Source: Strigamia acuminata
Lineage: Eukaryota; Arthropoda; Chilopoda; Geophilomorpha; Linotaeniidae
DNA length: 64,000 bases
Assembly (NCBI GenBank): GCA_949358305.1
Contig: OX442321.1
Location: 5,481,605 to 5,545,604, forward strand
Reading direction: 5' to 3'
Positions 13,741 to 37,970 of this stretch are shown here, one piece after another. The position numbers and the translations under genes were made by a program. Position 1 is the stretch's first letter, and each line of letters begins with the position of its first letter. The notes beneath the pieces were generated by a model. That model did not search any database. It worked only from the letters and a program-made list of their open reading frames with translations, and was not told the DNA's origin.

Positions 13741-13869
13741 GGGGTGCCGTTCCAACGGCGAATCGTCCAAGGGCGAATCTGGCCATTCGGACGAATGGCG
13801 AATTTCGACTTTATTCTGTCCAAAACAGTCCCAACGGCAAATTTCTCCCAATTCAGCATTGGGACTGCT

Positions 13870-15075
13870 TTTGGACCTTTCTAATGGCGAATTGGTAAAC
13901 GATTTGCCATTGGAAACGCAAAAACGTGACCAATGGCGAATATGTGTGTGCTGAATTTCGCCATTGGAAACGCAAAAACGTGACCAATGGCGAATATGTG
14001 TGTGCTGAATTTCGCCATTGGAAACGCAAAAACGTGACCAATGGCGAATATGTGTGTGCTGAATTTCGCTATTGGAAAGGGTTTTGCGTTTCCAATAGCG
14101 AATATGTGTGTGCTGAATTTCGCCATTGGAAACGCAAAAACGTGACCAATGGCGAATATGTGTGTGCTGAATTTCGCCATTGGAAACGCAAAAACGTGAC
14201 CAATGGCGAATATGTGTGTGCTGAATTTCGCCATTGGAAACGCAAAAACGTGACCAATGGCGAATATGTGTGTGCTGAATTTCGCCATTGGAAACGCAAA
14301 AACGTGACCAATGGCGAATATGTGTGTGCTGAATTTCGCCATTGGAAACGCAAAAACGTGACCAATGGCGAATATGTGTGTGCTGAATTTCGCTATTGGA
14401 AAGGGTTTTGCGTTTCCAATAGCGAATATGTGTGTGCTGAATTTCGCCATTGGAAACGCAAAAACGTGACCAATGGCGAATATGTGTGTGCTGAATTTCG
14501 CCATTGGAAACGCAAAAACGTGACCAATGGCGAATATGTGTGTGCTGAATTTCGCCATTGGAAACGCAAAAACGTGACCAATGGCGAATATGTGTGTGCT
14601 GAATTTCGCCATTGGAAACGCAAAAACGTGACCAATGGCGAATATGTGTGTGCTGAATTTCGCCATTGGAAACGCAAAAACGTGACCAATGGCGAATATG
14701 TGTGTGCTGAATTTCGCCATTGGAAACGCAAAAACGTGACCAATGGCGAATATGTGTGTGCTGAATTTCGCCATTGGAAACGCAAAAACGTGACCAATGG
14801 CGAATATGTGTGTGCTGAATTTCGCTATTGGAAAGGGTTTTGCGTTTCCAATAGCGAATATGTGTGTGCTGAATTTCGCCATTGGAAACGCAAAAACGTG
14901 ACCAATGGCGAATATGTGTGTGCTGAATTTCGCCATTGGAAACGCAAAATCGTGACCAATGGCGAATATGTGTGTGCTGAATTTCGCCATTGGAAACGCA
15001 AAAACGTGACCAATGGCGAATATGTGTGTGCTGAATTTCGCTATTGGAAAGGGTTTTGCGTTTCCAATGGCGAAT
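13870..15075. repeat. 54-bp tandem array, left arm (about 22 units)
   Basis: Each unit runs 'tttcgccattggaaacgcaa', 'aaacgtgaccaatggcgaat', 'atgtgtgtgctgaa'. Units are almost identical. Because 54 is divisible by three, frames without stops run through the array on both strands; these are not genes. Four units (near 14066, 14390, 14822 and 15040) are a variant in which 'ctattggaaagggttttgcg' is followed by 'tttccaatag', itself an inverted repeat. Variant units recur after blocks of 5, 7 and 3 standard units, suggesting expansion by unequal exchange or slippage. Confidence 0.95.
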
Positions 15076-15356
15076 TGAAATTGAACGAGCCGAGTGTGTA
15101 TTTAAAGTGCTTGTGAGTCACGAGCGAACGATTTGGTTTGTTTAAACTGGTCGACTGATTTATTTAGAAAGTTCTGCTGTTTAAATAAGACGAATTAAAC
15201 AGAACGTTGAGTGGACGTGATTCCCTAAAGCAAACGAACTGTGGACGTGATGCCAGGCGAGAGGTGACCGGATGTCACAGTGCTAAAGCCAATATTGGCC
15301 TAATATTGGTAGGCTACAAGAACGTATTGCTAGCTGATCGATTTTTACACATGCCG

Positions 15357-15545
15357 CATTTGCGCGATCGAATACAGCTAAACACCCGCCGTATTTGGGC
15401 GATCGAATACAGCCAAACACCCGCCGCATTTGCGCGATCGAATACAGCTAAACACCCGCCGTATTTGGGCGATCGAATACAGCCAAACACCGGCCGTATT
15501 TGGGCGATCGAATGCGGCGGATGTTTGGCTGCATTCGATCGCGCA
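15357..15545. repeat. 35-bp CGATCG-centred tandem array, left arm
   Basis: About five units of the form 'gcatttgcgcgatcgaatac' plus 'agctaaacacccgcc' alternate with 'gtatttgggcgatcgaatac' plus 'agccaaacacccgcc'. The last unit is followed by an inverted one (gcggatgtttggctgcattc), so the array folds back on itself at its inner end. Confidence 0.9.
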
Positions 15546-15600
15546 AATGCGGGCAGTGTTTGGTCGGTTCTCAGGTCTTAAAAAAATAAATAATAATTGA

Positions 15601-15760
15601 AATTGAACGAGCCGAGTGTGTATTTAAAGTATTTAAAGCAAACGAACTATGGACGTGATGCCAGACGGATGTCACAGCGCTAAAGCCAATATTGGCTATA
15701 ATTGGTAGGTTACAAAAACGTATTGCTAGCTGACTCCGACTGGTCCGCAACACACGCAAC
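15601..15760. repeat. Extra partial copy of the arm linker sequence
   Basis: Positions 15603-15735 repeat, with deletions, the linker found at 15076-15335 (gaacgagccgagtgtgtatt, ggacgtgatgccag, aatattggct). It is a duplicated, diverged piece of the left arm just inside the inverted repeat. Confidence 0.75.
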
Positions 15761-15988
15761 ACACGCTGCTGGTTTTAATTCAAAGTTATCTTTATTTGTA
15801 ATTCTAACTGGTTATGTAGTGCAATCGTCAGCTCCTATTGGCTGTTTAAAATAAAACGTTATTGAGACGTTCTCGTCTCCTTCCCATTCTCGTGTTCGTC
15901 TCGTCTCGTGTTCCTCAGGAACCCGAAAATTCTACAATTCATTAGTTCGAGACCAGCAGGACATGAACAGTGTTACACAACAATTTAG

Positions 15989-17123: not shown

Positions 17124-17926
17124 ATGATGATGTTAATCTGAGCCAGCCATTTGATCTCTCTCGTTTACAATGCTACATGAAATACGGATTGCCGAAACGG
17201 GACTCAATTTTAAGATACAATCGGACTCTCCAACCCAGCTGGGTTTTGGAACACTAAAAAAACAAAAGCCGCATTGAACTTTACAAGTGTAGGGCCATCC
17301 ACGTATTTGAAATGTTTCGCAACACCAAAATATAGTAGGCACTTGATTCAAAATTTGATCGTGAAGATGGTGATGAGGAAACTGAAGTGTTTCATTATTG
17401 AACATTGCAATTATTGCACTAGAATGCAGAGAATTCTCCGCATTCATCGAGGTTTGATAACCGATCGAATGATTTGATTTTTTGACGTTTTTGATGGATT
17501 TAAATGTGAAAAAAAGTTATTTTTGGTTGGAAAATATCGATTTGAGCTCGAATTTTGATGAATTTGTTATGAAAATGTGAATTTTTGATGGTTTTTAACA
17601 CTTTTAACCGATTTACATTCTGATTAATGTGGATACGTTTAGGAATTGTTCCATTTATGGTTTGTTTTGGCCAATCATGCGCTGTTTAGTTTCGTACTGA
17701 CAATTTTGCATTAAAATAGCACGAAAAAATGCATTTTTACACGCAGATTTCAATTTGTAAGTTTGCTTACTGTTAAAACTATTTATAGGAAAAGGCAAAC
17801 TGTGTAAGATTTGTATTACTTTTCATTTTAATTTTTTTTTCTCAAATATACTTGTAGAAAGTACGATTGGGAGGACAGCAGTGCCTGCATATGGACATGA
17901 TCAAGATCTATTTTGAAAACGAATAA
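17124..17926 (+). pseudogene. Scattered exon-like segments of unknown origin inside the MULE
   Basis: Three open segments sit behind plausible acceptors. 17124-17257 encodes DDVNLSQPFDLSRLQCYMKY and a following 24-residue stretch to a stop. 17339-17401 encodes ALDSKFDREDGDEETEVFHY and a stop. 17858-17926 encodes KVRLGGQQCLHMDMIKIYFE, NE and a stop, with AATAAA at about 18003. They do not join into one obvious gene. A nearly 60-bp direct repeat flanks part of the region (17030-17095 and 17700-17760). Confidence 0.3.
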
Positions 17927-20338
17927 TTATACAAAAAATATTTAATATTTTTGAAAAATTGTACTTCCTTATTTTAAATTTGATGTATTTTTCTTTCAAT
18001 TGAATAAAAACATATATTTTAATTTTTTCATCGATTTTTTCATTCCAACATGATTGACGGCCGGAAAATGAAGGCAAAATTGTCTATTTTAATAAAAATA
18101 AAAACATGATCAAATGTTGAAGAAAGAACTAGCTGCTAAGCTGATTGAAAAAAAAAGAATTTGAAACAAACGTCGAAGAAGTAGACACGATAAGAGCATC
18201 GTCCGATTTCGTGGGAAATGAGACGCGGCATCGAAAAGTGATATCCTCGTAAGTTGCGAGGCAGGAAAGCCACGCGTAATGAACCTCGATTCAAGAAACG
18301 ACCTTAAAGCCGAGACAGCAAATTACGTGAATTAATTATAACCGTTGACTAAATGCAATTAAAAGTTTTATTCAACATATTGGAACGTATTGGAACACGT
18401 ATTGCAACCAGTATTAGACACTCTGGATAACTTTTTTAATGTTTTTGAGATGGCGGAAATGTAAAACCAAGATGAAACGATCATCGCTGTTCAAATATTC
18501 GTTCTAATGAACACGAACCAGATGTCGGAGACGGACATGCATTTGGTCATCATTGACACAATTAGAGAGTCTCGTTTTAAAGGTGAAACGCAATAAATTG
18601 GCGGAATTTGTCATACTTATACTGAATTGGGAAATAAGACACGTGGACGACGAGAAAACAACACGACTTGGGACCATAGCTTTTGGATGAGAACAAAAAA
18701 CCATTCGACTATTTTCCGACAGTTTCGAGCACAGGACACATGTTTTATTGCAGTTTATCCAGTAGGAGGAGGTTTACCGCTCCCGTGGGCGACACAGACT
18801 TGCACATGCAGTTCTATAAAAATGAAGAAACGACGATAATTTTTGATAACATCACAGAATAAAAATTCGTGTTTTTATTTCGAATTGAAAATGTAGCGGT
18901 CGGTTTATTTTGACGATCAAATTGAAGGCAGCAATTGCAGGCTTTTGCCAATCGGTGACAAGTATTTCTTCGACTTGGAAATCCACATGAAAATCTTGGA
19001 GAGTTGTATAAATGAGAGAGAAATTGCCGGGTAGTTGGCAAAATTAAAAATGTAAAAGTCAGTGCAGAAATTCGACGGAGAAATTAATATTTTCCCGAGA
19101 GTTGATAATTCCACTGATTTATGAATACATCAGCACATTTTTGAATTCGTGGAAGATAAATTAGAGATAAACAAAATATATCGATCTCGTTCAGTTTGTG
19201 ACGATTCTACTTTTGGTTGAATTATAAGCCATTAAACGAGATAAATCGGTCGGAACAAGACATTGCTAAACCTAACAATAACCTAACCGAGATAAGCTAC
19301 GAAATATGTGCAACGTGAATAAATAACCAGAATAGCAAATAACTTACGGTTTTCCATGTTTATTATCAATACAACTGGTTCTGGGTTCTGGGCATGTGTA
19401 AACATAACCGATCGTTTTTGACGTTGCAATCGAATTCTTTCGAAGGTCGCCATGTCGTTTTTTCACTGTTCGATTGAATCTACGTTGGAACGACGTATCG
19501 GGGCACCTTTCACCCACATTTTTTAATCAATTTTCACGTGATTTTTTTTTTATTTATTTATTTTTTTATAATATTTTTTTTTTTTTTTTTTTTTTTAAGG
19601 AATTTAAGTGAAGTCACATTATTCAGCAATAGTCATTCTGTCCAAAAGACTATTTATTTCTGTACTAAGCCGTGGAATAGTAGGAAGTTTTCATTAGAAG
19701 CAACTCGCGCATTTCAATTCTTTTTAAGGTAATGACTTTGTGACCACAATCTTTTGCTATGCATAAAATGTTTGATACGGTTTGATTGCGAGGCCGGCTT
19801 GGAACAAAAAAATATATTTTTAGACTTTAAAATATAACTTAGCTAAAATATTAGACGCTTTTTAAAAAAAAACTTAGTCTATATTTTGAAAACTTATATT
19901 TTAAAGTTGTTAGCAATGAGAGAGCGGCTGACAAGAGAATTGACAACTGTTCTGGTTGGAAAATGTGCACAAACTGATTTATTCGAGCTCTGTACAATTA
20001 AAAAGTAAACAAAACAATTCTCGAACTTAAAATGTTACGACTTCTTCAATTGGTTGGCTTGACGCGACGTCATCAAACGACACCGACAGGTGCGCTACGT
20101 GGCAGGTGTTCGCCCCAGGCGCAAGGTCATCGCACAGACGTGAGGTCATCCTATGGCCTCACAAAAGTCTAAAAATATATTTTTTTGTTTCATTTCTTCT
20201 GGTAGAACTTACTGCTGCTATTCTCTTGGTTATTTTCTACTTTAGTATAAAGAAATTCTTACAATTCATCCAGAATTGTATGTTAACTAAATTTCACGTC
20301 ATTATGACGTAATTGTAAACTCTGCCAACGGAATTTTT
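17927..20338. other. MULE interior, AT-rich, no convincing gene
   Basis: One exon-like piece is visible at 18941-19030 (acceptor attgcag, donor gtagtt), reading LLPIGDKYFFDLEIHMKILE then SCINEREIAG. A poly-T tract lies at about 19545-19600. Otherwise I see only AT-rich sequence and short fragments without consistent frame. Confidence 0.4.
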
Positions 20339-20389
20339 TCTTTAAAGATCATAGGAAAAGAAATAAAAAATTTCTCTCATAGCTTTGAA

Positions 20390-21448: not shown

Positions 21449-22362
21449 CGGATATCAATATCAAATACAGACATGCAAGCCACTATCATCGAAGGATTCC
21501 GAAAGAATTCTAAGCTGTATTTAATAGATGGACTACTCTATAGGCGCGATTCCTCAAAGGACAATAAAGCATACCTGTCGTGCAATGACAGAGCTTGTAG
21601 TGGAAGGGCGATTTTGCAAACAATCACAAATGAATCACTAATTTCAAAAGAACATAATTTAGCACATCTGGATGCACACGTAGATGTAGCAAACAGGCAG
21701 TTTGCAGTTGTCGTTAAAACACGTGCTGAAGAAGAACCTTCAGTTAGCTTACGCACCATTTACCATGCCGCTGGTTTAGAGATCCCTGAAGCAACGACAT
21801 CATTCAGGTCTGCGGAGTCGGGAATGGCAAAGAGGCGGCGTCTGAATTTCCCAGTATTGCCTGACACTTCAGAGGAGTTAGCCCAGCTGTTACCCGAAAT
21901 AATGCATGGCCAAACGATTGGAGAAGAGATTTTTTTTCGAGAGCGACTGGTTGCGGGTGATGTAGAGATGTTAGTTTTCGCAGGGCCTCGAATGGTCACT
22001 GCCGCGACGAATGCTACGCTTTACCAGATGGATGGGACATTTACAGTTGTTCCGTTACCTTATTACCAACTGTTCACCATATTCGCCATTACGAACGGAT
22101 TTGCACTGCCTGTTCTGTTTGTGCTTATGACAGGCAAGACCCAGGCTGCGTACGAGACTTTGCTACGGTATGCAAAGAGCCTTAACTTAATGCGAGCTCA
22201 GGACCTAACCATTATCACCGACTTCGAGACAGGCTTGCTGCCAGCCATTCACCAACAGCTGCCTAATGCCCGGCACCACGGCTGCTACTTCCACTATTGC
22301 CAGGCTCTCTGGAGGAAAGTTCAAAGTCTGCGAATGATAAGAGAATACCGAACTGTGGTTGA
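21449..22362 (+). CDS. MULE transposase with N-terminal FLYWCH zinc finger (C-terminally truncated frame)
   Basis: The frame is open from a splice acceptor (ttttacag, 21441-21448); the first ATG is at 21473. The N-terminus is a FLYWCH-type zinc finger: LYLIDGLLYRRDS, then SCNDRACSGRAI (C-C pair), then EHNLAHLDAH (His region). FLYWCH fingers are common DNA-binding modules of animal MULE transposases. The MULE catalytic domain follows: first Asp in YQMDGTFTVVP, hydrophobic core YYQLFTIFAITNGFALPVLF, second Asp in LTIITDFETGLLPAI, and the C/H motif CYFHYCQALWRK. Soon after (about 22340) the recognisable domain stops, and the segment expected to hold the third acidic residue (Glu) is absent. The frame continues only into Cys-rich translation of an 18-bp repeat. 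This looks like an internal deletion plus frame change relative to the RING part downstream. Confidence 0.88.
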
Positions 22363-22657
22363 GATCAAAAGCATCGATTGTTGTACCCGCACCGATTGTT
22401 GTACCCGCACCGATTGTTGTACCCGCACCAATGCCTGTTGCTCGGCCACGCCCAAACACGCGCGCCCGTGTGCGAGATGCAAATGTAGTACCACCTGTAG
22501 TTGCGCCACGAGATGCAAATGTAGTACCACCTGTAGTTGCTCCACGAGATGCAGACGACATGAACTGCATAATATGTCTAACTGCCAGAAAGAATGCCAT
22601 TTTTCTGCCATGTGCACATGGCCACTGCTGCTTGCCTTGCAGTGAGCGGGTGATGCG
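22359..22657 (+). CDS. Proline-rich linker and RING finger, 5' half (interrupted by Gypsy LTR)
   Basis: This is in a different frame from the transposase. Three copies of an 18-bp unit encode IVVPAP repeats (about 22374-22427), and two copies of a 36-bp unit encode ANVVPPVVAPRD (about 22478-22550). Then CIICLTARKNAIFLPCAHGH is followed by CCLPCSERV. This is the first part of a C3HC4-like RING of the kind at the C-terminus of IAP-type E3 ligases. The Gypsy element inserts at 22657/22658. The final CPFC zinc pair lies beyond the far LTR at 35092-35103 in the same frame once the insertion is discounted. Confidence 0.82.
22654..22657. repeat. Left 4-bp target duplication of the Gypsy element (tgcg)
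   Basis: tgcg lies directly outside the LTR and recurs at 35029-35032 directly outside the other LTR. Confidence 0.88.
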
Positions 22658-23630
22658 TGCTGCGATCCGGGTTATTATCGCACTTATTTCTAATAAATAA
22701 GCACGAAACCGCAGGTGAATGCTAAAATAGACTTACAATCAGCGGCCTTAAACTTGTCTAGGGTTAAGTTTATTAAGTAGGAAAATAAAGACACAATTTT
22801 TATGATAAAAATCACACAAATTCTTTATTAAGTTAAATACAATGAAATATAAAATATATTGACTAGTTGAAATAGGAAGAGCGACAAGTCGCGTAACAAT
22901 TTGAGCGGAAAACAATGGAAGGGCTTGCAACGACTGTTGCAAGCTACAAAGCGCTAAAATGGCGCTTAAACAACACACAGTTGTTAGGCGAAGGCAAAGG
23001 TCTTCGTTTGCTGAACTCACGAACGATGGTCGAAGACGATGGTTCTCGTGGGCTCCTTCTACGGCTCGTGCGACGGCTCGGCGGCGGTGGTTGACGGCTG
23101 TAGGCGTCCGACTCTCGTACGATGGCGGTGGCTGGCGTTCGCGCGGCAGCGACGGCGATGGTTCACGATCGTCGGGAAACTTCTTCTTCTCGATTGCTGG
23201 AATTAGCTACGGCTAATTCAAGCAGAATTGCTGGCTTTGTGCTTTGGGTGGCACAAAGATAGCAGGTGAAACTGAGTTACAACGGTCCTCTATCAATACG
23301 TATTGTCGGAGCAGATATCGCAGTGATGTTGAGGTTGTTGTTGTATTTTTCAGAGTCCCGATTTGAGCCAAGACGCGAGCCCAGCACGCTTCAATATTGC
23401 GCAGAAAACCTGCGCACTTAGCTCAAATGGGTGCAACTAGTGGTTATTACACCATATTGCACCATAACGGCTAATAACCGTTTTCACCCCGGACAACCTG
23501 GGGTGATATGTGCCTAGAGAGGATTTCTCCCCTCGGTCACATGATCTGACTTGGCGTGTGCCACAGTCAAATTAATTAGAAGACAATTAATTTTATCTTC
23601 TAAGTTGGTGAATATTTTGAGATCACCACA
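22658..23630 (-). mobile_element. 3' LTR of the Gypsy element (973 bp)
   Basis: In element orientation it begins TGTGGTGATC and ends GATCGCAGCA (TG...CA). It is the same length as 34056-35028, and I see no difference between them on reading. Small open frames inside are identical in both LTRs and are not genes. Confidence 0.95.
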
Positions 23631-23642
23631 CATCCCCCCATT
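23631..23642 (-). promoter_or_regulatory. Polypurine tract of the Gypsy element
   Basis: The minus strand reads aaatggggggatg immediately before the 3' LTR terminus TGTGG. A G-rich purine run touching the 3' LTR is the expected plus-strand DNA primer. Confidence 0.8.
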
Positions 23643-23682
23643 TAAGACGAATCTTACATGGAGAGAAAATGAACGAACCAAT

Positions 23683-26481: not shown

Positions 26482-26670
26482 ACACTCTCGAAACTTTTGA
26501 AAAAGTGACTAAGTTCGTTGATTGCAAACACGAACTTGGATTAGAGACGCTTTGTGACGTCACTAATTATAACGTATGATTAACGTTGTCATTCGAGTGG
26601 GTACTACGAATGACGTCACGAGATTGCTTTCTCGGATCTTTTGGGTAAACCCAAAAGGTGAAAGACAACA

Positions 26671-29600
26671 CTATGTCTTGGCTCGCGGAACGCGAGATCT
26701 CAAGTTGTACTTTGACTTTCGCGAAGTACAATCCAACTTGTTTAGATTGTCATCAGCATCGTCTCCAATGTCAGATGAGTTATATACTTCATTGTTTGAA
26801 ATTTTCTCTTTTTCTAAAAACATTTCCTTTTCTAGATTTTCATCAAGAGAAACATTTTCAAGTCGCTGGTTTATTTCATCGACTTCGTTATTTTTGAGTT
26901 TCGATTTTTTACTCGATTCCGTGTTTTCGACAGGAATTTTGGATAATTTAACATCATCCAAGGTATTAACAATATTTTTTGTTTTTTGACCCACTTCCTC
27001 CCCTTCCAGCCAAATTTCTTGGTTGAAAACGGGAAAGTACGGCATTAATTCAGTGCCGTGAACAGCTGGATAAATTTTATTATCGCTCAGCCGTCGAAGT
27101 TGAAAGGCGCCTCCTTGTAACCTTTTGATAATTACATAAGGCCCATTCCTTTTCGGTGAAATGCCTGCTGCTATTCCTTTAGCGGCATTTGAGAGAATAT
27201 GAGACTCTCGCCAGACTAAATCATTTTGTCTGAAGTTGTCGAATTTCTTATCTGATTTTTCAGCTTCGACACGGCGTCTCAAATCTAAGACGTGAGACAT
27301 CATATGCTGATACGTCTCTGCAATTATTGTTTCTAATTTCTGAACATATAAATGCGGATTTTTTGGATCAATGACCAAAATTCCTTCCGGAATTCTTGGA
27401 TCCCAAGGAATTCTTAATTCTCGGAAAAAATTTAAGAAAGCTGGAGAATAATCTCTGCCTCTTGTTACAGTTGTTCTTAAACTGAATGCAAATTCGCGTA
27501 GATACTCGTCCCATTGGTCGTGAATATCTAAATAAATCGAAACTAAATATTTAATATCTCGATTGGTTCTCTCCACAGGATTGCTTTGTGGATGATAAAT
27601 CGATGTCGGTGTTCGCGACATGTCGAATTTTTTGCAAAATTCTTTATAGACCTGTGATCGAAATTGTGGTCCATTATCACTTATGATTTGTCTCGGAAAT
27701 CCGAAAGTCATTGATAAGTGATAAATTGTGTTGGCAACTTTTATTGCCGTTGGATTACACATTGGAAATAATTCGGGCCAATGTGTAGCGACATCTACGA
27801 TGACGCAAATGTGGGTATTGTTTTTTCTGGTTCTTGGTTTGGGACCAGACAAATCCACACTGAGGCAGTCAAATGGTCCAAATGGTCCAATTTGAGCGCC
27901 TTCAATTTCGGTCTTTGATCTCGGCTTACATGCCTGACATCCTTGACAATGTTGAATAAAACGTGTAATATCACGTTTCATACCTTTCCAGGTATAAACT
28001 CTTCGAGTTCGGTACATTGTCCTCGCAATGCCTGGGTGGCCGGACAGTGGGTGTCCGTGCATCAACCAAATGATTTTATAAATCAATTTTCTTGGCACAA
28101 CAACTTTAAGTGCCCTACCATCCTCTCCTAATTCATCGGTAGAGGTAGGATGATAATGGAGTAACATATCTTCTTCAATGAGATAAGTACTTGCGTGTCT
28201 TTCAAAATTTCTTCTTTGAAGACGAGTTACTATGTAACTTGGATATTGCTTGTTTAACAAGTAATTGCGAATATGTTGGCAAAATTGGTCTGCTTTTTGC
28301 GCCGCAATAATGTCATCTCTCGTTGGAGGATCACATTCTAATTGCTTAGCAATTTTAGCTGCAAATGCTTTAATTAAAACATTTGTTGTTGGCAGCTCGA
28401 ATTTTTTAGCCATCATAGCTCTTAATTCGACGTCAGGGGTTCCTGACGGATCATGCATGTTAATACAAAAATTGATTAATGCTTGATCGTCTTCATTAAC
28501 TATTATCGACTTGGGTAATTCATTCAATTTTCCCATTTGCCAACTTCGGCAAGGAGATGGACAATATGATAATAAATCATCATTATCGCCATCGTCTTCT
28601 GGTTCGTCAGGTGCGCTGACAGGTGCACGAGACAATGCGTCTGCTATTACATTTAGCGGACCTTTGACGTACTGTATTTCGAACGAATACGCCATCAGCT
28701 CCATTTGCCAACGAGCTAATCTGCCCGACGGGTCAGATAACGACATCAACCACTTAAGTGCTTGGTGATCCGTTTGTACAGTGAATGTAGTGTACTCTAA
28801 GTATGGGCGAAATTTGCGTAATCCCCATACTACTGCGAGACATTCTAATTCTGTCACAGTATAATTCTTTTCAGCGGGTTGCAAGCTTCTGCTTGCATAC
28901 ACGCATGGCATTTCGACTTCTTGGCCATCCACAATTTTCTTTTGTGTAAGGGCTGCACCCAACCCTTGTTTACTGGCGTCAGTATGAACAATAAATGGCA
29001 TGTACAAGTCAGGCATCTTCATTGTTTCAGCATTCGTAAGCAGGTCTTTTATTGCGTCGAATGCTGCTTGATGATGCAGTTCCCAATCGAACTCCGCATC
29101 TTTCTTCAAGAGTGGCCTTAGTGGTTCTGCCACTGTGGCCAAATTCTTGATTAGGCGGTGAAAGAAATTCACCATGCCTAGAAATCTTTGTAATTCCTTA
29201 AGATTGGTAGGAGCAGGAAATTGCGTAATTGCAGCGACTTTTTTAGGGTCTACTGCAAGTCCTTCTACTCCTACTTTGTAGCCTAGAAAAATTAATTCCT
29301 TTCTACAGAGATGCGTCTTGCCAGGGTGCGCATGTAAATTAGCTTCTGCCAATTTTTTAAACACTATATCTAAATGTTTAATGTGTTCTTCGAACGATTT
29401 GGATACAACAATTATGTCATCCAAATATGCCCATGCAAATTTTCTGTAAACGTCACCCAAAACTTTTTCCATTAATTCTTGGAAGGTAGTTGGTGCGTTT
29501 ACTAATCCGAAAGGCATGACTAAAAACATTAGTCTTCCCATTGGGCTCCAGAAGGCAGTTTTTTCTCTGTCTTCAGGTCGCAATTCTATCTGCCAATATC

Positions 29601-30926
29601 CCTTGGTCAGATCTATAGTACTGACCCATTCGAATTCTCCGATTTCTCGCAGAATTTCCTCAATTGTTGGCATTTGAGGTGGGTTGTACTTAGTATGTGT
29701 ATTGATGGGGCGAAAATCAATGCACAAGCGTGGGTCGTTTCCTGGTCGCATGACTAGGACTGGCCGCATTCCGTAATCGCCTTCAGCTTTGACGACTACG
29801 CCTTTGTCAATCATGTCTTGACAAAGTTGTCTGATTATTTCCCTTTTTTGAGGGTTTATGCTCTTAAAGGGGACACGGATGGGTTTCTCCGTGTCAAGCT
29901 CAATTTTGTGCTTAACCAGGTGTGTTTTACCTGGATCTTTAGAAATAATCCTTTTATGTTTGGATAACATCTTTTCTAATAATTTGGATTGCTCCAAATT
30001 TAAGTTAGCTTCTTCGACTAACTTTTGGATGAAATTCTCTTCATCAATTTTGCCTTGAGTTACACTTGCAGCGTAAGCTTTTGCAAAGGTCATAAATGAG
30101 GAATCGGGTTCCTCTATTTTCTCCAAATAACGATCCAGCAACGCTTGTGGAATGTAGGGTAAATCTGCATCCATAGGTTGCGTGAAATTCCAAGACATCG
30201 TCTGTGGATTAGGTTGGATTTTTAATTTATTCATAAAATCGCAACCCAATAGTACCATTGGATACTTATTTGGTATTACGATGAACGGATGACGTAACGT
30301 GCCATGTGTCCATCGAAATGAAAGATGGATGGTTCCATCTGGAGTGACTTCTTCACTTGCCGTCGTAACTCTGACACCAGGTCCGATAGGTCGTAGATAT
30401 TTTTCTAGACCTAATTGATTAATAACTGAAGTGGCTAGGAAGCTTTTATTTGCTCCTGAGTCCAACATTCCGGTTATTACACCTTTTAACGTTTCTAACT
30501 TTAACGTTGGAAGGTCTTGGCTGTTTGGTATTCCAGCCACTTTGCACTCAAACTTGCGCAATTTATGATGAACGGTAATTGGAGGCTCCAAAGGCAATTC
30601 ATCTAATAACTCATTGGTATCAAGAGTTGTAGCTGCAAATAACTTAATGCATTCCTCAATTCCAGGTGTCTCTGGAACTGAGCTTGGTCTATCGTCTTTA
30701 ACTTCGACTTTATCTTGAATATTGGAAGTGTCTTCTTCAGTCGGGGTTTCGCCGACAATCTCCTTTTTTACATCAAGAGATCCATTTTCTTTTAGTTCAG
30801 TTTGACGAATTAATTCATCAATAGCTTCTCCAACATCTTCCATTATCTTCAGATTTTCATTCTCTGATTCCGATTTCGGAGGTGACGCAGCGTCCACTAG
30901 ACCTGATGGATCTGCGTCTACAAGTT
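26671..30926 (-). CDS. pol: Pol polyprotein of the Gypsy element (protease, RT, RNase H, integrase)
   Basis: The frame is entered by -1 shifting at 30924-30930 rather than from its own ATG; the first GTG is at 30897. Counting from 30897, the aspartic protease has the DSGA motif at about residue 146. Reverse transcriptase follows with LCIDFRPINTHT and the catalytic YLDDIIV. RNase H has FIVHTDASKQGLGAAL. Integrase has a His-His-Cys-Cys zinc domain (HPLSGHPGIARTMYR..., CQGCQAC) and the D,D-35-E core (LSVDLSGP, ISDNGPQFRS, HPQSNPVERTNRD). A C-terminal chromodomain is not evident; the tail is Glu/Lys/Ser-rich. The frame is complete, with no stops, ending near a KYNLRSRVPRAKT tail. These enzymes carry out polyprotein processing, cDNA synthesis and insertion. 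Confidence 0.96.
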
Positions 30927-33900
30927 TTTTCGAAACATGTCAGTTATGATCTTGACTGCTTTTTCAAACTCAGCTGTTGACACTGGTTTGTCCTTTTTAG
31001 AGGAAGGGCAGTCTTTTTGCCAATGCCCTAATTTTTTGCATAAATTGCATGGATCAGTGGCAGGCGATTTCTTTTTCGTTGCTGCTGGCGAGGCAGAACG
31101 AGAACGAGCGTCAGACCGGCGCTCTGGCGACACCGCGGGTGATTTTGAATTCCTTTCGGTATTCACCTTTGATGCGTCAAATGAAACATTTTTTGGTTTC
31201 ATTTTTGGCTTCCATTTGCCTGCAACGGGGTTATTTTTTGCTAACAGCGCCGCTGCTTTGGCTAATAAAGCCATCGTCTCGTCTCCTGTTTCCTCCTCCT
31301 CTTCAGCTTCTTCAGCTTCAGACGACGGAGTTTCAGCTCCAGTTATATTTGCGTGTAACTTAGGGACTGAATGAGGATTTTTGACGTCCTTTTTGGAAGA
31401 TTCTTTTTTCGAACTCTTCTCATCCACTTCGTCTAGAAAGTCTTCGTAACTAGGTGGCTGCAACAATTTCAAACCATTAAAGGTTTCATTGTTTTGCTCA
31501 GCGAGTCTTTTCTCTCGCTTTAAGTACGCTGACCTTTCGGCTTCTGTAAGATAAGCTTTGTACTTTTCGTCAATGCGCAATTGATTGACTTCCATGAATT
31601 CGTTTAACTCGGAGAATTTCCCCGGGTCGGGAGCGTCCGACATCATCAGAATATTTTTACTATATTCTGTGAGGCCAGCTCTAAACTGATCATCTGCTGT
31701 TGCATCAGTAACAGCATGTGGCATTCTGCCAAGCAGATTCTCTGCTCTTAGCATGTACGAATGTAAGCTTTCGCCTTTTCGTTGCTTAAGACATCTCCAG
31801 AGCGTTTTGATGTCTTCGCTCGATTCACCAAATTTAAACATAAATTGTTTAACGAAGTCATCCCACTTCGTGAAGTCTTTCCTGCGAAACCACTCCTTGA
31901 CACCGCCAACTAGTATTCTTGGTACTAGATGGGCCAATGCACCTTCACAGCTAAAACTGTGAACTTTGCCTAGTTCGAATATTTCCAGCAAGAGGTTTGA
32001 CCCTGCTTGCCAATTTCCATTATAGGCATGTGGGATAACTCGATCCCATCTAATGAACTTTTCATCTGTTGTTTGATGAATCCATTTATCAGAAGTAAAT
32101 TCACTTATTTTTTGCAAAATAATTTTATCCCTTCTGCTTTTTCGCTGTTGTTGAGCATTTTGCCTCAACAACTGGTCAATCTCATCTTTCGTGTAGAAAT
32201 CGGGTCTTTGAGTTCTACTACGTGTTCTGTGACGAGATCGCCCTCTCACACTGGGACGTGAGGAATCTGTATCTGACGCAGATTCATGATTCGGATTTGG
32301 CGGCGGATCAGGGTCCGGAGGATCGTCGCCATCTGGCGGACGACGGTCTCCATTTGGTGGTCCCCTTCCATTTCGATTGCCATTCGAATTGTGGTCACGT
32401 GAGTGGCCACCTCCATGTCCATCTGAACTGTCTCCACCTGGTGGGTCACCACCCGGCGGATTTCCACGGTATCTCGGCCCATCACGGATGTCGTTGTGAC
32501 AATCTCGTTTTGGTGAGCCTTCTCGCGGATTATCGTGTGACCGTCCACGATCGTGTGGTTTCTCACGTTCTTTATTCTTTTTCGCCAGCAATCCAATTAA
32601 TTGGTCACTATTGCTAAAGAATCTATCCGAATTTTGCGGAACTTTTGGGGAATGATATTCGGTCGGGTCTGGTTGTCGCTTTCTCTTTTTGCGACTGTGA
32701 TGACTATTACGGCTTCCACGACTACTGCGTGAGTCATCGCTGTCAGTCCAACTTGATTGTCGACTGACTTTTGGTTTAGCTGATGTTAAATCAATCAACT
32801 CAGGTGATTTGGAAGCACCTTTTTGCAAAACTGGGGCTGGCTTTGCAAAATTATCTTCGCCACAAACGTCTTGTACTTTTTGTACGACTACTGCAAAGTT
32901 TTCTTGTACCGTCAATAGATCTGCGCGAAGAATTTCGTTTTCACGAGCTTGCGCAGCTAAGTCGGCACGTAATAACTGCTCTGCAGTGCTTAGACTTTTG
33001 GCGGCTTGACCAGCATCAATTACAGACTGCTGTCGAGCGAGAAATACTTCGTTTTCTCGTTGTGCTAATCTCTTAGCTCTTGCTGCTTGTTCTGCAGCAT
33101 AATTCTCGTAATTTCGAGAAGTGGAGGGAATTACTTCCCTCGCTCGAACTGGGGCGGTTAGTTCGGCAGTCATTAAATTTGTGTTGGCTTCTCGCAAATT
33201 TGCGTTGGCCAATCTCAAATTTTCATTAGCAATTTCTAAATCTTTTTGGGCTTGATTTAGTTGCTCGAGCCTTTGTTGTTGCTCTTCGTCAGTAATTAGC
33301 CAGGAAGCTTTTTCCTGTTCTAATTGTAACAACTTAACATGGTCATTCGCACGTTGTTGTTTTAGTTCGGCATTTTGCTGATGCATTTCTGCACGCATTC
33401 GCTCGAACTCTGCTTGCAAGCTTGTTCTGACGATTTCAACGTCTTTTTGGCTTTGTTTGCGAACCATAGCTTTGTGGATTTGTTCCACAGTCATTTCGCT
33501 AGTGACTTTTACTCCCTCGAGCCTAGCTCGCTCACGGAGTGCGTCCATCATGGTAACACGCACGGGAGAATGAGAAACTTCCATATTGGAGTTCTCAGAA
33601 TCTTGTTGTGCTGCACCTTGAACCGGTGATGAATTCAGCGAGTGCTCCGCACTTGATGATTGAATTCGTAAATTCAAATCATCGTTTTGCGACTTGGAAC
33701 GGCCACTTCCAGTTGGATTGTTTAAGTCCAACTGGCCGCTTGGCGGGGATGGCTGTTGTCGCTCCAACGCTTGCGTGAATTCATTCACGATTAACTGTGC
33801 CGAGTTACAGTTAGCTGTTTGATCCATAGTTTCAAACAGTTCTTGTGACTCAGTCACTTCTTGATCCACGACTGGTAGATCGATGGCCACTCGTCTCTTC

Positions 33901-33941
33901 GCCGGTCTGCCTCTCGGTCTCTTTTCACTTGGAGTCGCCAT
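30918..33941 (-). CDS. gag: Gag polyprotein of the Gypsy element, about 1007 residues
   Basis: I chose ATG 33941 (MATPSEKRPRGRPAKRR), because the upstream in-frame extension lacks a better start. The N-terminus has an AT-hook-like GRPAKRR. Residues of roughly 150-370 are strongly heptad-like coiled coil rich in Gln/Glu/Leu. A Ser/Arg- and Gly/Asp/Pro-rich disordered region follows (RGNPPGGDPPGGDSSDGHGG). The capsid-like retrotransposon gag domain comes next (WDDFVKQFMFKFGESSEDIK, GESLHSYMLRAENLLGRMP). Near the C-terminus is a single CCHC zinc knuckle, CNLCKKLGHWQKDC. It ends MFRKNL and TAG. About 1000 residues is unusually long for a Gypsy gag; the extra length is the N-terminal coiled coil and disordered part. 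Confidence 0.93.
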   Translation of the reverse strand: MATPSEKRPRGRPAKRRVAIDLPVVDQEVTESQELFETMDQTANCNSAQLIVNEFTQALERQQPSPPSGQLDLNNPTGSGRSKSQNDDLNLRIQSSSAEHSLNSSPVQGAAQQDSENSNMEVSHSPVRVTMMDALRERARLEGVKVTSEMTVEQIHKAMVRKQSQKDVEIVRTSLQAEFERMRAEMHQQNAELKQQRANDHVKLLQLEQEKASWLITDEEQQQRLEQLNQAQKDLEIANENLRLANANLREANTNLMTAELTAPVRAREVIPSTSRNYENYAAEQAARAKRLAQRENEVFLARQQSVIDAGQAAKSLSTAEQLLRADLAAQARENEILRADLLTVQENFAVVVQKVQDVCGEDNFAKPAPVLQKGASKSPELIDLTSAKPKVSRQSSWTDSDDSRSSRGSRNSHHSRKKRKRQPDPTEYHSPKVPQNSDRFFSNSDQLIGLLAKKNKEREKPHDRGRSHDNPREGSPKRDCHNDIRDGPRYRGNPPGGDPPGGDSSDGHGGGHSRDHNSNGNRNGRGPPNGDRRPPDGDDPPDPDPPPNPNHESASDTDSSRPSVRGRSRHRTRSRTQRPDFYTKDEIDQLLRQNAQQQRKSRRDKIILQKISEFTSDKWIHQTTDEKFIRWDRVIPHAYNGNWQAGSNLLLEIFELGKVHSFSCEGALAHLVPRILVGGVKEWFRRKDFTKWDDFVKQFMFKFGESSEDIKTLWRCLKQRKGESLHSYMLRAENLLGRMPHAVTDATADDQFRAGLTEYSKNILMMSDAPDPGKFSELNEFMEVNQLRIDEKYKAYLTEAERSAYLKREKRLAEQNNETFNGLKLLQPPSYEDFLDEVDEKSSKKESSKKDVKNPHSVPKLHANITGAETPSSEAEEAEEEEETGDETMALLAKAAALLAKNNPVAGKWKPKMKPKNVSFDASKVNTERNSKSPAVSPERRSDARSRSASPAATKKKSPATDPCNLCKKLGHWQKDCPSSKKDKPVSTAEFEKAVKIITDMFRKNL
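30924..30930 (-). promoter_or_regulatory. -1 ribosomal frameshift slippery site A AAA AAC between gag and pol
   Basis: In the gag frame the message reads CGA AAA AAC TTG TAG, so the heptamer A AAA AAC is correctly phased as X XXY YYZ, two codons before the gag stop. A -1 slip moves reading into CTT GTA GAC, which is exactly the open pol frame. A AAA AAC is one of the classic slippery sites of retroelements. I did not find an obvious strong hairpin by eye downstream. Confidence 0.88.
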
Positions 33942-34035
33942 TTTTCGAATGAAGACAAAGAAAGGATAGAGAAGAAAGATAAGCAAGATAAAAATGGCGG
34001 GTAAATTTTAAACTATCAAAATTTATACAATGACT

Positions 34036-34053
34036 ATCCCGGACGGGCCCCCA
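34036..34053 (-). promoter_or_regulatory. Primer-binding site, tRNA-Pro-like
   Basis: Two bases after the 5' LTR the minus strand reads TGGGGGCCCGTCCGGGAT. This differs by one base from the well-known tRNA-Pro primer site TGGGGGCTCGTCCGGGAT, so proline tRNA is the likely primer. Confidence 0.8.
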
Positions 34054-34055
34054 CG

Positions 34056-35028
34056 TGCTGCGATCCGGGTTATTATCGCACTTATTTCTAATAAATAAGC
34101 ACGAAACCGCAGGTGAATGCTAAAATAGACTTACAATCAGCGGCCTTAAACTTGTCTAGGGTTAAGTTTATTAAGTAGGAAAATAAAGACACAATTTTTA
34201 TGATAAAAATCACACAAATTCTTTATTAAGTTAAATACAATGAAATATAAAATATATTGACTAGTTGAAATAGGAAGAGCGACAAGTCGCGTAACAATTT
34301 GAGCGGAAAACAATGGAAGGGCTTGCAACGACTGTTGCAAGCTACAAAGCGCTAAAATGGCGCTTAAACAACACACAGTTGTTAGGCGAAGGCAAAGGTC
34401 TTCGTTTGCTGAACTCACGAACGATGGTCGAAGACGATGGTTCTCGTGGGCTCCTTCTACGGCTCGTGCGACGGCTCGGCGGCGGTGGTTGACGGCTGTA
34501 GGCGTCCGACTCTCGTACGATGGCGGTGGCTGGCGTTCGCGCGGCAGCGACGGCGATGGTTCACGATCGTCGGGAAACTTCTTCTTCTCGATTGCTGGAA
34601 TTAGCTACGGCTAATTCAAGCAGAATTGCTGGCTTTGTGCTTTGGGTGGCACAAAGATAGCAGGTGAAACTGAGTTACAACGGTCCTCTATCAATACGTA
34701 TTGTCGGAGCAGATATCGCAGTGATGTTGAGGTTGTTGTTGTATTTTTCAGAGTCCCGATTTGAGCCAAGACGCGAGCCCAGCACGCTTCAATATTGCGC
34801 AGAAAACCTGCGCACTTAGCTCAAATGGGTGCAACTAGTGGTTATTACACCATATTGCACCATAACGGCTAATAACCGTTTTCACCCCGGACAACCTGGG
34901 GTGATATGTGCCTAGAGAGGATTTCTCCCCTCGGTCACATGATCTGACTTGGCGTGTGCCACAGTCAAATTAATTAGAAGACAATTAATTTTATCTTCTA
35001 AGTTGGTGAATATTTTGAGATCACCACA
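34056..35028 (-). mobile_element. 5' LTR of the Gypsy element (973 bp)
   Basis: This is the partner of 22658-23630 with the same length and no difference noticed. It should hold the promoter in the orientation that reads toward lower coordinates. Confidence 0.95.
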
Positions 35029-35133
35029 TGCGTGGAGAATATACGGATGCCGCGGGAGTTCAGCGTGTGGGTAGAAGACCTCATTGCCCCTTCTGCCGTG
35101 GTCGCGTGGTTAGCGTGCTCAGAATTTTTCTCT
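35029..35133 (+). CDS. RING finger, 3' part, of the interrupted MULE gene
   Basis: After the second TGCG duplication the frame started at 22359 continues, reading about 11 residues, then VGRRPHCPFCRGRV and a TAA at 35131-35133. The CPFC pair supplies the last two zinc ligands missing on the left side. This shows the RING was one exon before the Gypsy insertion. Low-complexity DNA with AATAAA-like sequence follows. Confidence 0.82.
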
Positions 35134-36521
35134 AAGATGTCATTTTCTTTTTTTACATAATAAACATTATATTCCAATATTTTAAAACCGCAATAAACAA
35201 TTTAAAACTGCTAGAATTCATTCGAAATTGGAATAAAAACATGAAATTAGTGCATTATTTGCCTCTTTAACTTCCTTGACCGCAACACTCCGAAGTGCTT
35301 CAAATTTCCCACTCACTTTGTAAGCGTTTTAAATACACACTAGGCTCGTTTGAGAAAATGATTTGTCCGTGTCCTCGTTCACTTTTCGATCTGCGCGACG
35401 GTCGACAGTCGATGGCTGACGGCCGTCGGACGTCGTACGTCGACTGTCGACCGTCAACTGTCGAATGTCGTGGCCGTCAGCTGAAGACTGTCGCGTCCGT
35501 CGGATGACAACAGCTGACGGTCAATCATGCTTTATTAGTTCGTTAGTTCATTTTTAACTTTGCTAAATGTTTTTTCATTCTTGTACAGTCACATCTTATT
35601 ATTTCATTCGGTTTTGTTCCAATCAATAAATAAATAAATACTCTTAATTTAAGAAAAAAAATTCAATATTATATTTATTCGCATTAAATTACAATTTGTA
35701 TGCAAATTAAACAATTTTGCTAGATGAGCAAAAAGACACTCAGATGTGCGATCACATACTATTTGCTATGGCGTATTGGCGAAGGAAATGCTTTTAACGA
35801 CGATGGATTTAATTAAGCGTTGTTCAACAGCAAAAACAATTTTACAATGCTGGCATATGTGGATCTGTGTGGATGTTAAAGCAAATATCGTGTGTTATGT
35901 GAAAAATAGAAAATTACAGCAAATAATCCAAAATACCAGCATCCAAAAATTTTAAAAAATTAAAAAAAAAATAGCCGAAAATTATCAAAATAACCTGAAG
36001 TAACACCAAATAACAACAAAAAAATTACCGAAAATAACAGAAAATAACAGAGAATCATCAAAAATTACCAAAAAAATAGAAAAAAAATTGACGGTTTTAG
36101 GATTTAGTGTATTATTTTGGTGGTGATAAGTTGGCAGTAAAAACCTTAGCGGTTTGGAATGGGTGGTGGTGTTGTGCTATGCTATGCAGCTAAAACAGCT
36201 TTACATGACACTTTACAATAATTAAATGCACATATTTAAAATATTTAAAAAAAATTATAAGTACCGGTATACATTATAAATACACCATAATTTGTGATAA
36301 AAGATGTTGTAGATGTGTATGTTTTGTGATGTTAAACGACTTTTGAATGCAGCTATTGTGTACTTTTTAAAAATCTTCATAATAACCATGTTAAATCAAA
36401 ATAAATTAGGCGCATTCAATTCTAAATTACAAAAATCCGATTTCAAAAACTTGATTACAGAATTGGTTTTTAACTTTGAACGAGTTAAAAACCGATAATC
36501 AAGTTTTTGATTATCTATTTA
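35134..36521. other. MULE interior right of the Gypsy insertion, no gene seen
   Basis: 35390-35530 is a GC-rich, self-complementary stretch of 'gtcgac', 'ctgacggc' and 'cgtcagctg' words that could fold into an extended hairpin. 35960-36080 is 'aaaataacagaaaat'-type low complexity. 36386-36495 is the direct repeat shared with 20390. No coding exon is convincing. Confidence 0.5.
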
Positions 36522-37961
36522 AATTATTATTTATTTTTTAAAGACCTGAGAACCGACCAAACACTGCCCGCATTTGCGCGATCGAATGCAGCCAAACATC
36601 CGCCGCATTCGATCGCCCAAATACGGCCGGTGTTTGGCTGTATTCGATCGCCCAAATACGGCGGGTGTTTAGCTGTATTCGATCGCGCAAATGCGGCGGG
36701 TGTTTGGCTGTATTCGATCGCCCAAATACGGCGGGTGTTTAGCTGTATTCGATCGCGCAAATGCGGCGGGTGTTTGGCTGTATTCGATCGCCCAAATACG
36801 GCGGGTGTTTAGCTGTATTCGATCGCGCAAATGCGGCATGTGTAAAAATCGATTGGTACTGTTGCGGATCAGCTAGCAATACGTTCTTGTAGCCTACCAA
36901 TATTAGGCCAATATTGGCTTTAGCACTGTGACATCCGGTCACTTCTCGCCTGGCATCACGTCCACAGTTCGTTTGCTTTAGGGAATCACGTCCACTCAAC
37001 GTTCTGTTTAATTCGTCTTATTTAAACAGCAGAACTTCCTAAATAAATCAGTCGACCAGTTTAAACAAACCAAGCAAACCAAGCACTTTAAATACACACT
37101 CGGCTCGTTCAATTTCAATTCGCCATTGGAAACGCAAAACCCTTTTCAATGGCGAAATTCAGCACACACATATTCGCCATTGGTCACGTTTTTGCGTTTC
37201 CAATGGCGAAATTCAGCACACACATATTCGCCATTGGTCACGTTTTTGCGTTTCCAATGGCGAAATTCAGCACACACATATTCGCCATTGGTCACGTTTT
37301 TGCGTTTCCAATGGCGAAATTCAGCACACACATATTCGCCATTGGTCACGTTTTTGCGTTTCCAATGGCGAAATTCAGCACACACATATTCGCCATTGGT
37401 CACGTTTTTGCGTTTCCAACGGCGAAATTCAGCACACACATATTCGCCATTGGTCACGTTTTTGCGTTTCCAACGGCGAAATTCAGCACACACATATTCG
37501 CCATTGGTCACGTTTTTGCGTTTCCAATGGCGAAATTCAGCACACACATATTCGCCATTGGTCACGTTTTTGCGTTTCCAATGGCGAAATTCAGCACACA
37601 CATATTCGCCATTGGTCACGTTTTTGCGTTTCCAATGGCGAAATTCAGCACACACATATTCGCCATTGGTCACGTTTTTGCGTTTCCAATGGCGAATTTC
37701 AACATGCACATATTCGCCATTGGAAGCGTAAAAACGTTCCCAATGGCGAATTTTACATTAAAAACAAATCTCCCACATTCGCCCTTGGAAACAGAAAATA
37801 TCTTTCCAATGGCGAATGTGGGAAATAAAACATTCCTGCACTCAAAAAACGTTTCCAATGGCGAATTTAATAAAATTTGCCATTGGAAACGTCAAAATAG
37901 GTTTCTAAAGGCGAATTTCCAAAATTCGCCCTTAGACGATTCGCCGTTGGAACAGGTACCC
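36522..37961. repeat. Right long terminal inverted repeat of the MULE
   Basis: Reverse complement of 13741-15600, with the same order of modules. It has about eight 35-bp units (36570-36838), the linker, about eleven 54-bp units (37118-37720), diverged 'aatggcgaat' words and the terminus ending ggtaccc at 37961. The arms differ in array length, so they are not equalised by gene conversion. Confidence 0.88.
37118..37720. repeat. 54-bp tandem array, right arm (about 11 units)
   Basis: Same unit as the left array in opposite orientation. Two adjacent units carry 'ccaacggcgaa' instead of 'ccaatggcgaa'. The 'ctattgg...ccaatag' variant of the left arm is absent here. Confidence 0.95.
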
Positions 37962-37970
37962 GTTTTTAAT
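37962..37970. repeat. Right 9-bp target-site duplication of the MULE (gtttttaat)
   Basis: It matches 13732-13740. Directly after it the interrupted repeat unit resumes with taatgtttctacc, as in uninterrupted sister copies. Confidence 0.9.

What the first reader, a model, noticed from the sequence alone, without database searches (positions are those of the whole stretch)
13741..37961. A 24-kb foldback-type MULE with tandem-repeat arms, caught with its empty-site relatives
Seen: inverted ends (ggggtgccgttccaacgg / gggtacctgttccaacgg), an exact 9-bp duplication (gtttttaat at 13732 and 37962), and sister repeats at about 43760, 49272 and 59415 that read straight through the target. Known: Mutator-like elements make about 9-bp duplications, and Drosophila Foldback elements have arms of tandem repeats. 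Inference: this joins both traits in one large element that carries its own MULE-type transposase and extra sequence.
Basis: partly seen in the sequence, partly recalled or inferred. Interest (0 to 1): 0.93.

Follow-up and report, generated by a model that had tools for sequence, protein, structure and literature searches.

The report
Foldback Mutator-like transposon with nested retrotransposon
This is a recently mobile jumping gene of the Mutator kind whose two ends are long stacks of one short paired motif; the copy in this window is inflated to twice its size by a retrotransposon that landed inside it, and its transposase carries an unusual extra ubiquitin-ligase-like (RING) domain.

Summary
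13741-37961 has matching inverted tips, an exact 9-bp target duplication and four uninterrupted sister repeats. At least 10 genomic copies share both boundaries or the left one; eight of the nine others have 8-bp duplications, so the window's 9 bp is the exception.
The "24 kb" is misleading. About 11.85 kb is the transposon; 12.4 kb (22658-35028) is a nested gypsy-like LTR retrotransposon (identical LTRs, TGCG duplication). The window's transposase is broken twice: by this insertion and by a 572-bp frameshifting deletion shared with three other copies. So the deletion form spread on transposase made elsewhere (inferred). Four other copies keep an open 619-620-aa, single-exon protein: FLYWCH-like, MULE catalytic and C-terminal RING domains.
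The arms hold 48 and 30 copies of the 13-bp motif TTCCAAYGGCGAA, mostly alternating in orientation; it is also at both tips and almost absent elsewhere. I read these as transposase-binding sites (inferred). The interior carries decayed fragments of host C2-domain and BTB-BACK genes.
Foldback-type MULEs with 8/9-bp duplications are published (Tm1, Muta1), so the headline is not new. New details: the RING fusion, kept in one further, 45%-identical lineage here and not listed for 19 database relatives, and host-gene fragments in an autonomous animal MULE.

The parts
13732..13740 (.). left copy of the 9-bp target-site duplication gtttttaat
13741..13767 (+). left terminal inverted repeat tip; holds the first iteron (TTCCAACGGCGAA at 13750)
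   Evidence: exact 24-mer at 64 genomic places
13902..15075 (+). left array of 54-bp units, each an inverted iteron pair; 48 iterons (up to 2 mismatches) in the whole left arm
15076..15352 (+). left spacer, 93.6% identical to the right spacer; left type stays on the left in the family-A copies that keep it
15353..15513 (+). left inner array of 35/70-bp units
15772..15909 (.). stretch 94% identical to C1:5653242-5653379 elsewhere in the genome
15984..16588 (+). decayed fragment of a host C2-domain gene (exon match 16291-16398 plus intron sequence; compare C6:6831702-6833145)
17628..17885 (.). stretch 90% identical to C1:35284401-35284657
18324..19096 (+). decayed fragment of a host BTB-BACK gene (gene cluster C3:14.98-15.22 Mb; related fragment C13:2608353)
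19196..19403 (.). copy of a dispersed genomic repeat (13 other places on 7 contigs among those scored, 81-87%)
21473..22375 (+). transposase residues 1-301 (FLYWCH-like, MULE catalytic core with D187 and D250)
22376..22657 (+). transposase from about residue 491 into the RING; the 572-bp frameshifting deletion lies just before it
22654..22657 (.). left 4-bp duplication TGCG of the nested LTR element
22658..35028 (-). nested gypsy-like LTR retrotransposon, LTRs 22658-23630 and 34056-35028 identical; gag-like ORF 30921-34007(-), pol 26674-30939(-), unassigned 759-aa ORF 23686-25962(-)
35029..35135 (+). right duplication TGCG and the remaining RING codons with the stop (end reckoned from the intact copy)
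36607..36837 (-). right inner array of 35/70-bp units
36841..37117 (-). right spacer
37118..37753 (-). right array of 54-bp units; 30 iterons in the whole right arm
37935..37961 (-). right terminal inverted repeat tip with iteron at 37940
37962..37970 (.). right copy of the 9-bp target-site duplication

Best explanation
The window holds a recent insertion of a DNA transposon of the Mutator-like (MULE) superfamily with foldback-type arms, later enlarged by a nested gypsy-like LTR retrotransposon. SHOWN: tips, target duplications, empty-site paralogs, at least 10 copies with the same left tip (nine with both) and nearly identical bodies, an open transposase frame in four other copies, one deletion shared by four copies including this one, the nested LTR element, and iterons concentrated in the arms and tips. 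INFERRED: transposase made by open copies binds the 13-bp iteron (at both tips and stacked in inverted pairs in the arms), pairs the ends, excises the element and inserts it with an 8-bp, occasionally 9-bp, staggered cut. The stacked sites raise binding specificity and let deletion derivatives, family-B elements and 0.43-0.47-kb miniatures be moved in trans. The 54-bp arrays grow and shrink by unequal exchange or slippage, helped by their hairpin-forming units. The interior picked up host gene fragments as DNA, introns included. Most tentative: the C-terminal RING works as a ubiquitin ligase or dimerisation module of the transposase.
For: Copies and boundaries. Duplications: family A 8 bp in 8 of 10, 9 bp in 1 (window), none in 1 (right tip lost); family B 8 bp in 9 of 12 (8 distinct sites, two rows share flanks), none in 3; miniatures 8 bp in 2 of 3, 7 bp in 1. 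Empty sites. Transposase in the 10 family-A copies: four open frames of 619 (three) or 620 (one) residues without stops, four copies with the same loss of residues 302-490 (same junction by alignment), two copies without the region. MULE domain E 7.9e-12 and RING E 6.8e-9, both over their cutoffs; D187 and D250 invariant in 12 and in 17 aligned proteins, E374 at least 90% in the 12. Iterons: 78 of 81 window matches lie in the arms, Markov trials give 0-3 for the arms; three miniatures without 54-bp arrays keep the tips and 7-9 iterons. Unit consensus is identical between left and right arm in 7 of 7 family-A copies scanned but differs from family B. Nested LTR.
Against: FLYWCH scores 19.0 bits, below the Pfam cutoff of 23.6. 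E374 drops out of the 90% list when five more, partly fragmentary proteins are added. No expression, binding or excision data. The iteron-as-binding-site step rests on position, repetition and conservation only. The left and right spacers do not exchange, so arms are not homogenised as a whole. dN/dS for the RING in the young pair L050/L051 is 1.7 on only 7 changes, which gives no support for constraint. 3 of 12 family-B copies and 1 of 10 family-A copies lack a duplication.
Confidence: 0.9

Rival explanations
1. A segmental duplication or assembly artefact that brings inverted repeats and an LTR element together, not a transposon.
For: One pair of family-B copies (C32 and C1:5.4 Mb) shares flanks, so assembly duplicates probably occur in this genome.
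Against: Ten family-A copies with the same left boundary, nine with both, in different flanks and with private 8/9-bp duplications at nine; paralogous empty sites in the window.
Confidence: 0.02
2. The arm arrays are passive satellite-like expansions with no role in transposition; only the outer 20-30 bp are recognised.
For: Array size varies from 12 to 48 iterons per arm among 19 copies counted, and copies over most of this range have duplications. Miniatures with 7-9 iterons have duplications too.
Against: The same motif sits at both tips and is kept in miniatures and in family B while the sequence between motifs changed. Galileo THAP domains bind such repeats (abstract of PMC3688188).
Confidence: 0.3
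3. It is one giant composite transposon in which the LTR element and host fragments travel as functional cargo.
For: Two other long copies also hold LTR-type sequence: C1:348 (24.9 kb, same LTR family) and C4 (22 kb, stretches 66% like the window's pol); C1:566 (20.5 kb) has about 6.1 kb that matches nothing in the window element. Host fragments are in all ten copies at least in part.
Against: The LTR elements sit at different places: C1:348 has one at 16596-16600 with its own duplication GCTT, the window has one at 22658 with TGCG. The 22658 site is empty in the seven other copies that retain it. Host fragments carry stops.
Confidence: 0.05

Closest known systems
Muta1 of Aedes aegypti (PMC5225508; passages read)
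   Same: MULE transposase; 8 or 9 bp target duplications; TIR with terminal motif plus 9 subterminal tandem copies; classed there as type 2 Foldback; nearly identical copies
   Different: 3.2 kb, TIR 145 bp, two exons, 504 aa; here 7.5-12.4 kb without large inserts, arms to about 1.9 kb, single exon, 619 aa with C-terminal RING, host gene fragments
Tm1 of root-knot nematodes (PMC3169594; abstract, passages, sections 6 and 9 read)
   Same: Mutator/Foldback family; FLYWCH-MULE transposase; TIRs with variable numbers of a 14-bp motif differing between ends; asymmetric 7-bp outer tips; non-autonomous and miniature members; the two TIRs of an element 93.15% identical on average
   Different: 2.6 kb, 7 predicted exons, 496 aa, 9-bp duplications, 1-9 motif units; here 12-48 iterons per arm in 19 copies counted, arranged as inverted pairs
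Phantom group of MULEs (PMC6446971; passages read)
   Same: 8-10 bp duplications, TIR 18-613 bp, FLYWCH or SWIM, animal hosts; minisatellite noted in aphid members
   Different: No RING listed for Phantom in the table passage seen; no tree was built here, so membership is open
Ghost MULE of aphids (PMC6446971; passages read)
   Same: RING zinc finger associated with a MULE transposase
   Different: There in a separate 420-bp ORF and no TIRs or TSDs found; here fused to the transposase C-terminus
Drosophila FB/NOF (recalled), Tetris (PMC4079207, passages) and Galileo (PMC3688188, abstract)
   Same: Foldback arms with internal tandem repeats; Galileo repeats hold transposase-domain binding sites
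   Different: Galileo is a P element; for Tetris no transposase was found; FB details are recalled, not read
Pack-MULE / Pack-TIR (PMC8277862; passages read)
   Same: TIR element carrying host gene fragments, multicopy with distinct duplications
   Different: Here the family also keeps its transposase, and the nearest other genomic relatives of the fragments are only 69-94% identical; that survey reports no Pack-MULE in 100 animal reference genomes

Membership tests
MULE (Mutator-like) superfamily | MULE DDE transposase domain (PF10551) | tested here: met
   45.9 bits against cutoff 27.6, residues 185-277; D187, D250 invariant in A1 and A2, E374 at least 90% in A1 only
MULE (Mutator-like) superfamily | target duplications of about 8-11 bp | tested here: met
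   8 bp in 8, 9 bp in 1 and none in 1 of 10 family-A copies
MULE (Mutator-like) superfamily | cut-and-paste movement | not testable with these tools
   no excision or expression data
Foldback-type element | long inverted arms built of tandem repeats, variable in length | tested here: met
Phantom family | FLYWCH zinc finger at the N-terminus | tested here: inconclusive
   19.0 bits, below the 23.6 cutoff; 8 of 18 homologs list PF04500
Phantom family | groups with Phantom reference transposases in a tree | not tested
   reference sequences not fetched
Drosophila FB/NOF | FB arm repeats and NOF coding region | not tested
   no FB sequence was compared
Pack-MULE | carries host gene fragments | tested here: met
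   C2 and BTB-BACK fragments
Pack-MULE | non-autonomous, no transposase of its own | tested here: not met
   four family-A copies have an open transposase frame, so family A is not filed as Pack-MULE
Gypsy-like LTR retrotransposon (nested part) | two LTRs, PR-RT-RH-IN order, short target duplication | tested here: met
   identical LTRs; RVT_1, RT_RNaseH, Integrase_H2C2 and rve above cutoff, protease families below cutoff; TGCG duplication

The most novel reading that the evidence does not exclude
A lineage of animal MULE transposases has permanently fused a RING ubiquitin-ligase module to its C-terminus. The RING is under selection and regulates transposition, for example by controlling transposase turnover or host repair at the break, much as RAG1 carries a RING (recalled). 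The stacked inverted iterons form a multimer platform that lets this enzyme move large elements carrying host gene fragments.
Probability: 0.27. Interest if true: 0.65.

Novelty: new variant of a known kind. Interest (0 to 1): 0.45.

Why it matters
It adds a very large, apparently recently active animal foldback MULE with open transposase copies, deletion derivatives, non-autonomous relatives and 0.43-0.47-kb miniatures sharing one iteron, in one genome. That makes two questions testable: whether stacked arm repeats serve as transposase-binding arrays, and whether a RING fused to a DDE transposase acts in transposition. The survey in PMC8277862 reports no Pack-MULE in 100 animal reference genomes, so host gene fragments in an animal MULE are worth following. 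It also warns that nested LTR insertions can make an ordinary-sized transposon look giant.

Tried and rejected
Arm swapping: the block alignments suggested that some right arms were copies of the left arm. The spacers show left type on the left and right type on the right in the copies that keep them, so this was dropped; only the 54-bp arrays look homogenised.

Retro-capture (cDNA) of the C2 gene fragment: the three separate blocks against C6 looked like joined exons. The alignment shows intron sequence and, by eye, a splice acceptor kept in the element, so DNA-level capture is more likely.

Host identification: a search for nematode SL1 RNA gave no match, but its control also rang nowhere. 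TTAGGC repeats gave one interstitial run (two overlapping matches, against 6 for the reversed-letter control). COX1 searches did not complete. Host left unnamed; animal-type genes only (Uso1/p115, tetraspanin).

RING elsewhere: a search with residues 541-619 had 13 candidates and no hit at E up to 1, so it neither shows nor excludes the fusion in other species. Solved structures: only a weak RING-region match to a TRIM2 chain, E 0.03. Rfam (gathering threshold) and tRNA scans of the window gave nothing. Structure prediction never ran.

The probability of the novel case was lowered from 0.30 to 0.27 for this.
Full report
1. What was checked. The window lies at C10:5481605-5545604 of an unnamed eukaryotic assembly of 237.5 Mb in 157 contigs. 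The tips, the 9-bp duplication and the empty-site paralogs are real. A fourth paralog, at about 51.78 kb, also reads through. The paralogs belong to a local cluster of repeated sequence in the window; a 103-aa ORF at 38698-39006 lies beside the insertion and has only weak, below-cutoff Pfam matches.

2. A family, not a singleton. A search with the outer 160 bases scored 40 of 132 candidates and found 10 places at 100%; the right end gave 9 at 100% over its full 202 bases and one cut at base 188. I fetched the nine other family-A copies and 12 of the more distant family-B copies. The exact left-tip 24-mer occurs at 64 places and the right-tip 24-mer at 58, with none for the reversed-letter control. 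Duplications, counted by script: family A, 10 copies: 8 bp in 8, 9 bp in 1 (the window), none in 1 whose right tip is lost. Family B, 12 copies: 8 bp in 9, none in 3; two of the nine share flanks and are probably one locus assembled twice. Miniatures, 3 copies: 8 bp in 2, 7 bp in 1. Muta1 of Aedes also makes 8 or 9 bp (PMC5225508, passages).

3. The nested LTR element. 22658-35028 is a gypsy-like retrotransposon on the minus strand. The LTRs are identical over the 975 aligned bases from 22656; with TG...CA ends they are 973 bp. Pol carries RT, RNase H and integrase domains over cutoff; a gag-like ORF with a below-cutoff zinc knuckle precedes it. Compared with an open copy, TGCG is duplicated at the insertion. 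The site is empty in the seven other family-A copies that retain it (C6, C4, C1:566, C1:434, C1:348, C1:334, C1:62); C1:269 and C1:235 lack the whole transposase region. C1:348 holds a related LTR element elsewhere (16596-16600) with its own duplication GCTT, so these are independent insertions. Without its LTR element the window's transposon is about 11.85 kb.

4. The transposase. Four copies (C1:566, C4, C6, C1:62) have one open frame without stops, 619 aa in three and one residue longer in C1:62. Pfam finds MULE (residues 185-277, above cutoff), RING C3HC4_3 (553-612, above cutoff) and FLYWCH (12-62, below cutoff). In 12 aligned proteins D187 and D250 are invariant and E374 is at least 90% conserved; with five more, partly fragmentary proteins D187 and D250 stay invariant and E374 leaves that list. 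Four copies, including the window, lack residues 302-490 through one deletion, 572 bp in the window, that shifts the frame. These four lie at different sites and three have their own 8/9-bp duplications (the fourth, C1:334, has lost its right tip), so the deletion form itself was mobilised, presumably by transposase from open copies (inference).

5. The RING. The eight zinc-ligand positions (C556, C559, C571, H573, C576, C580, C604, C607; ligand assignment mine from the C3HC4 pattern) are all identical in P0020, a second transposase in the same genome (C3) that is 45% identical overall. A third frame, on C12, also has the RING but is a close relative of P0020, so it is not an independent lineage. 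A 69%-identical match to residues 551-618 alone lies at C1:34227107 and was not fetched; another, 30%-identical lineage at C3:33923406 matches only residues 6-533. At saturated synonymous divergence, amino-acid identity between family A and P0020 is 28 of 55 in the RING, 141 of 286 in the MULE region, 32 of 70 in the FLYWCH region and 20 of 66 in the linker, so the RING is about as constrained as the catalytic region. Against this, the young pair L050/L051 shows a ratio of 1.7 on 7 changes, which is uninformative. Of 19 distinct database relatives found by two searches (18, 18, 17 shared), none has a RING among its listed Pfam domains; both searches scored only the best 8000 candidates, and some relatives are fragments. 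In print, a RING in a separate ORF is described for Ghost, and a C3HC4 ring finger for one Phytophthora MULE (PMC6446971, passages). My text searches for MULE, FLYWCH, RING finger and transposase together and for RING domain, ubiquitin ligase and DNA transposon with other terms listed no paper that names a FLYWCH-MULE-RING fusion in title or abstract start; this covers only the open-licence library.

6. The arms. The 13-mer TTCCAAYGGCGAA with up to 2 mismatches occurs 48 times in the left arm, 30 times in the right arm, once in the interior, never in the LTR element and twice in the 40 kb of flanks. It starts at base 10 of each end; within the arrays it alternates in orientation, while the first four on the left all point inward. 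Each 54-bp unit is an inverted pair that folds as a hairpin (z -5.3 for the A unit, -6.6 for the B unit). In 19 copies counted (7 of 10 A, 12 of 12 B) arms hold 12 to 48 iterons and mostly differ between the two ends. Of six further loci fetched, three had both tips and are miniatures of 428-465 bp; they lack the 54-bp arrays yet keep 7-9 iterons; the other three show 6-10 iterons in the part fetched. In each of seven family-A copies the left and right unit consensus is identical, and mean unit identity is 0.939 between arms against 0.934 and 0.955 within them. Of nine family-B copies scanned (of 12), seven also agree; in the two shortest, under 2 kb, the scanned stretch covers both arms, so their left consensus is not valid. 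The A and B consensus differ. The adjoining spacers differ by 6.4% between sides and keep their side. So the arrays evolve in concert within a family while the spacers do not. Galileo transposase domains bind repeats inside long TIRs (PMC3688188, abstract), which is the direct precedent for reading the iterons as binding sites. Here that step is inference.

7. Host fragments. The 3.8-kb non-coding interior is shared at 100% (rounded) over its whole length by 8 places including the window, by C1:348 in two pieces around its LTR insertion, and in part by C1:62. Inside it, 16193-16430 matches a C2-domain exon with intron sequence at C6, and 18324-19096 matches a BTB-BACK gene of a clustered family on C3 at 74-76% in the two main blocks, with stops and an internal deletion (BACK above and BTB below the Pfam cutoff in the stretch fetched). 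A related fragment on C13 is 91% identical and aligns through the deletion. Two more stretches match single places at 90% and 94%. The fragments are decayed. I did not read the wider flanks of the presumed parents, so some could be old element copies.

8. Known or new. What remains as variation is size and iteron number, the RING fusion, and host-gene fragments in an autonomous animal MULE; PMC8277862 states that no Pack-MULE was identified in its 100 animal reference genomes (passage).

Noticed in passing
window 23686-25962 (-): 759-aa ORF of no Pfam family downstream of pol in the nested LTR element, in a stretch of 51-58% G+C that stands out from the rest of the window.
   Followed up: partly
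window 38-60 kb: Local cluster of repeated sequence (for example 37962-39147, 43.6-44.7, 51.6-52.9, 59.2-60.2 kb) with small ORFs, which supplies the empty sites.
   Followed up: partly
window 50164-50740: 20-bp tandem repeat, 29 copies, 93% matches, with open frames on the minus strand.
   Followed up: no
L028, L035, L037: Three family-B elements carry a nested 1378-aa retrotransposon-like ORF (copia-like by eye); L042 carries a different 1034-aa pol-like ORF.
   Followed up: no
L028-L029 and L037-L038: The C32 copy and the C1:5.4 Mb copy share flanks and duplication; C32 (61.5 kb) is probably an alternative haplotype contig.
   Followed up: partly
G000:C3:33923406-33924998 and others: More divergent MULE transposase frames (23-31% identity), several open over 450-790 codons, suggest several MULE families in this genome.
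   Followed up: no
window 2437-3675 and 8134-8421: Pieces of a Uso1/p115 vesicle-tethering gene (head region above cutoff, armadillo part below) and of a tetraspanin gene near the left end.
   Followed up: partly
window 19196-19403: Copy of a dispersed repeat (81-87% copies at 13 other scored places on 7 contigs) inside the transposon interior.
   Followed up: no
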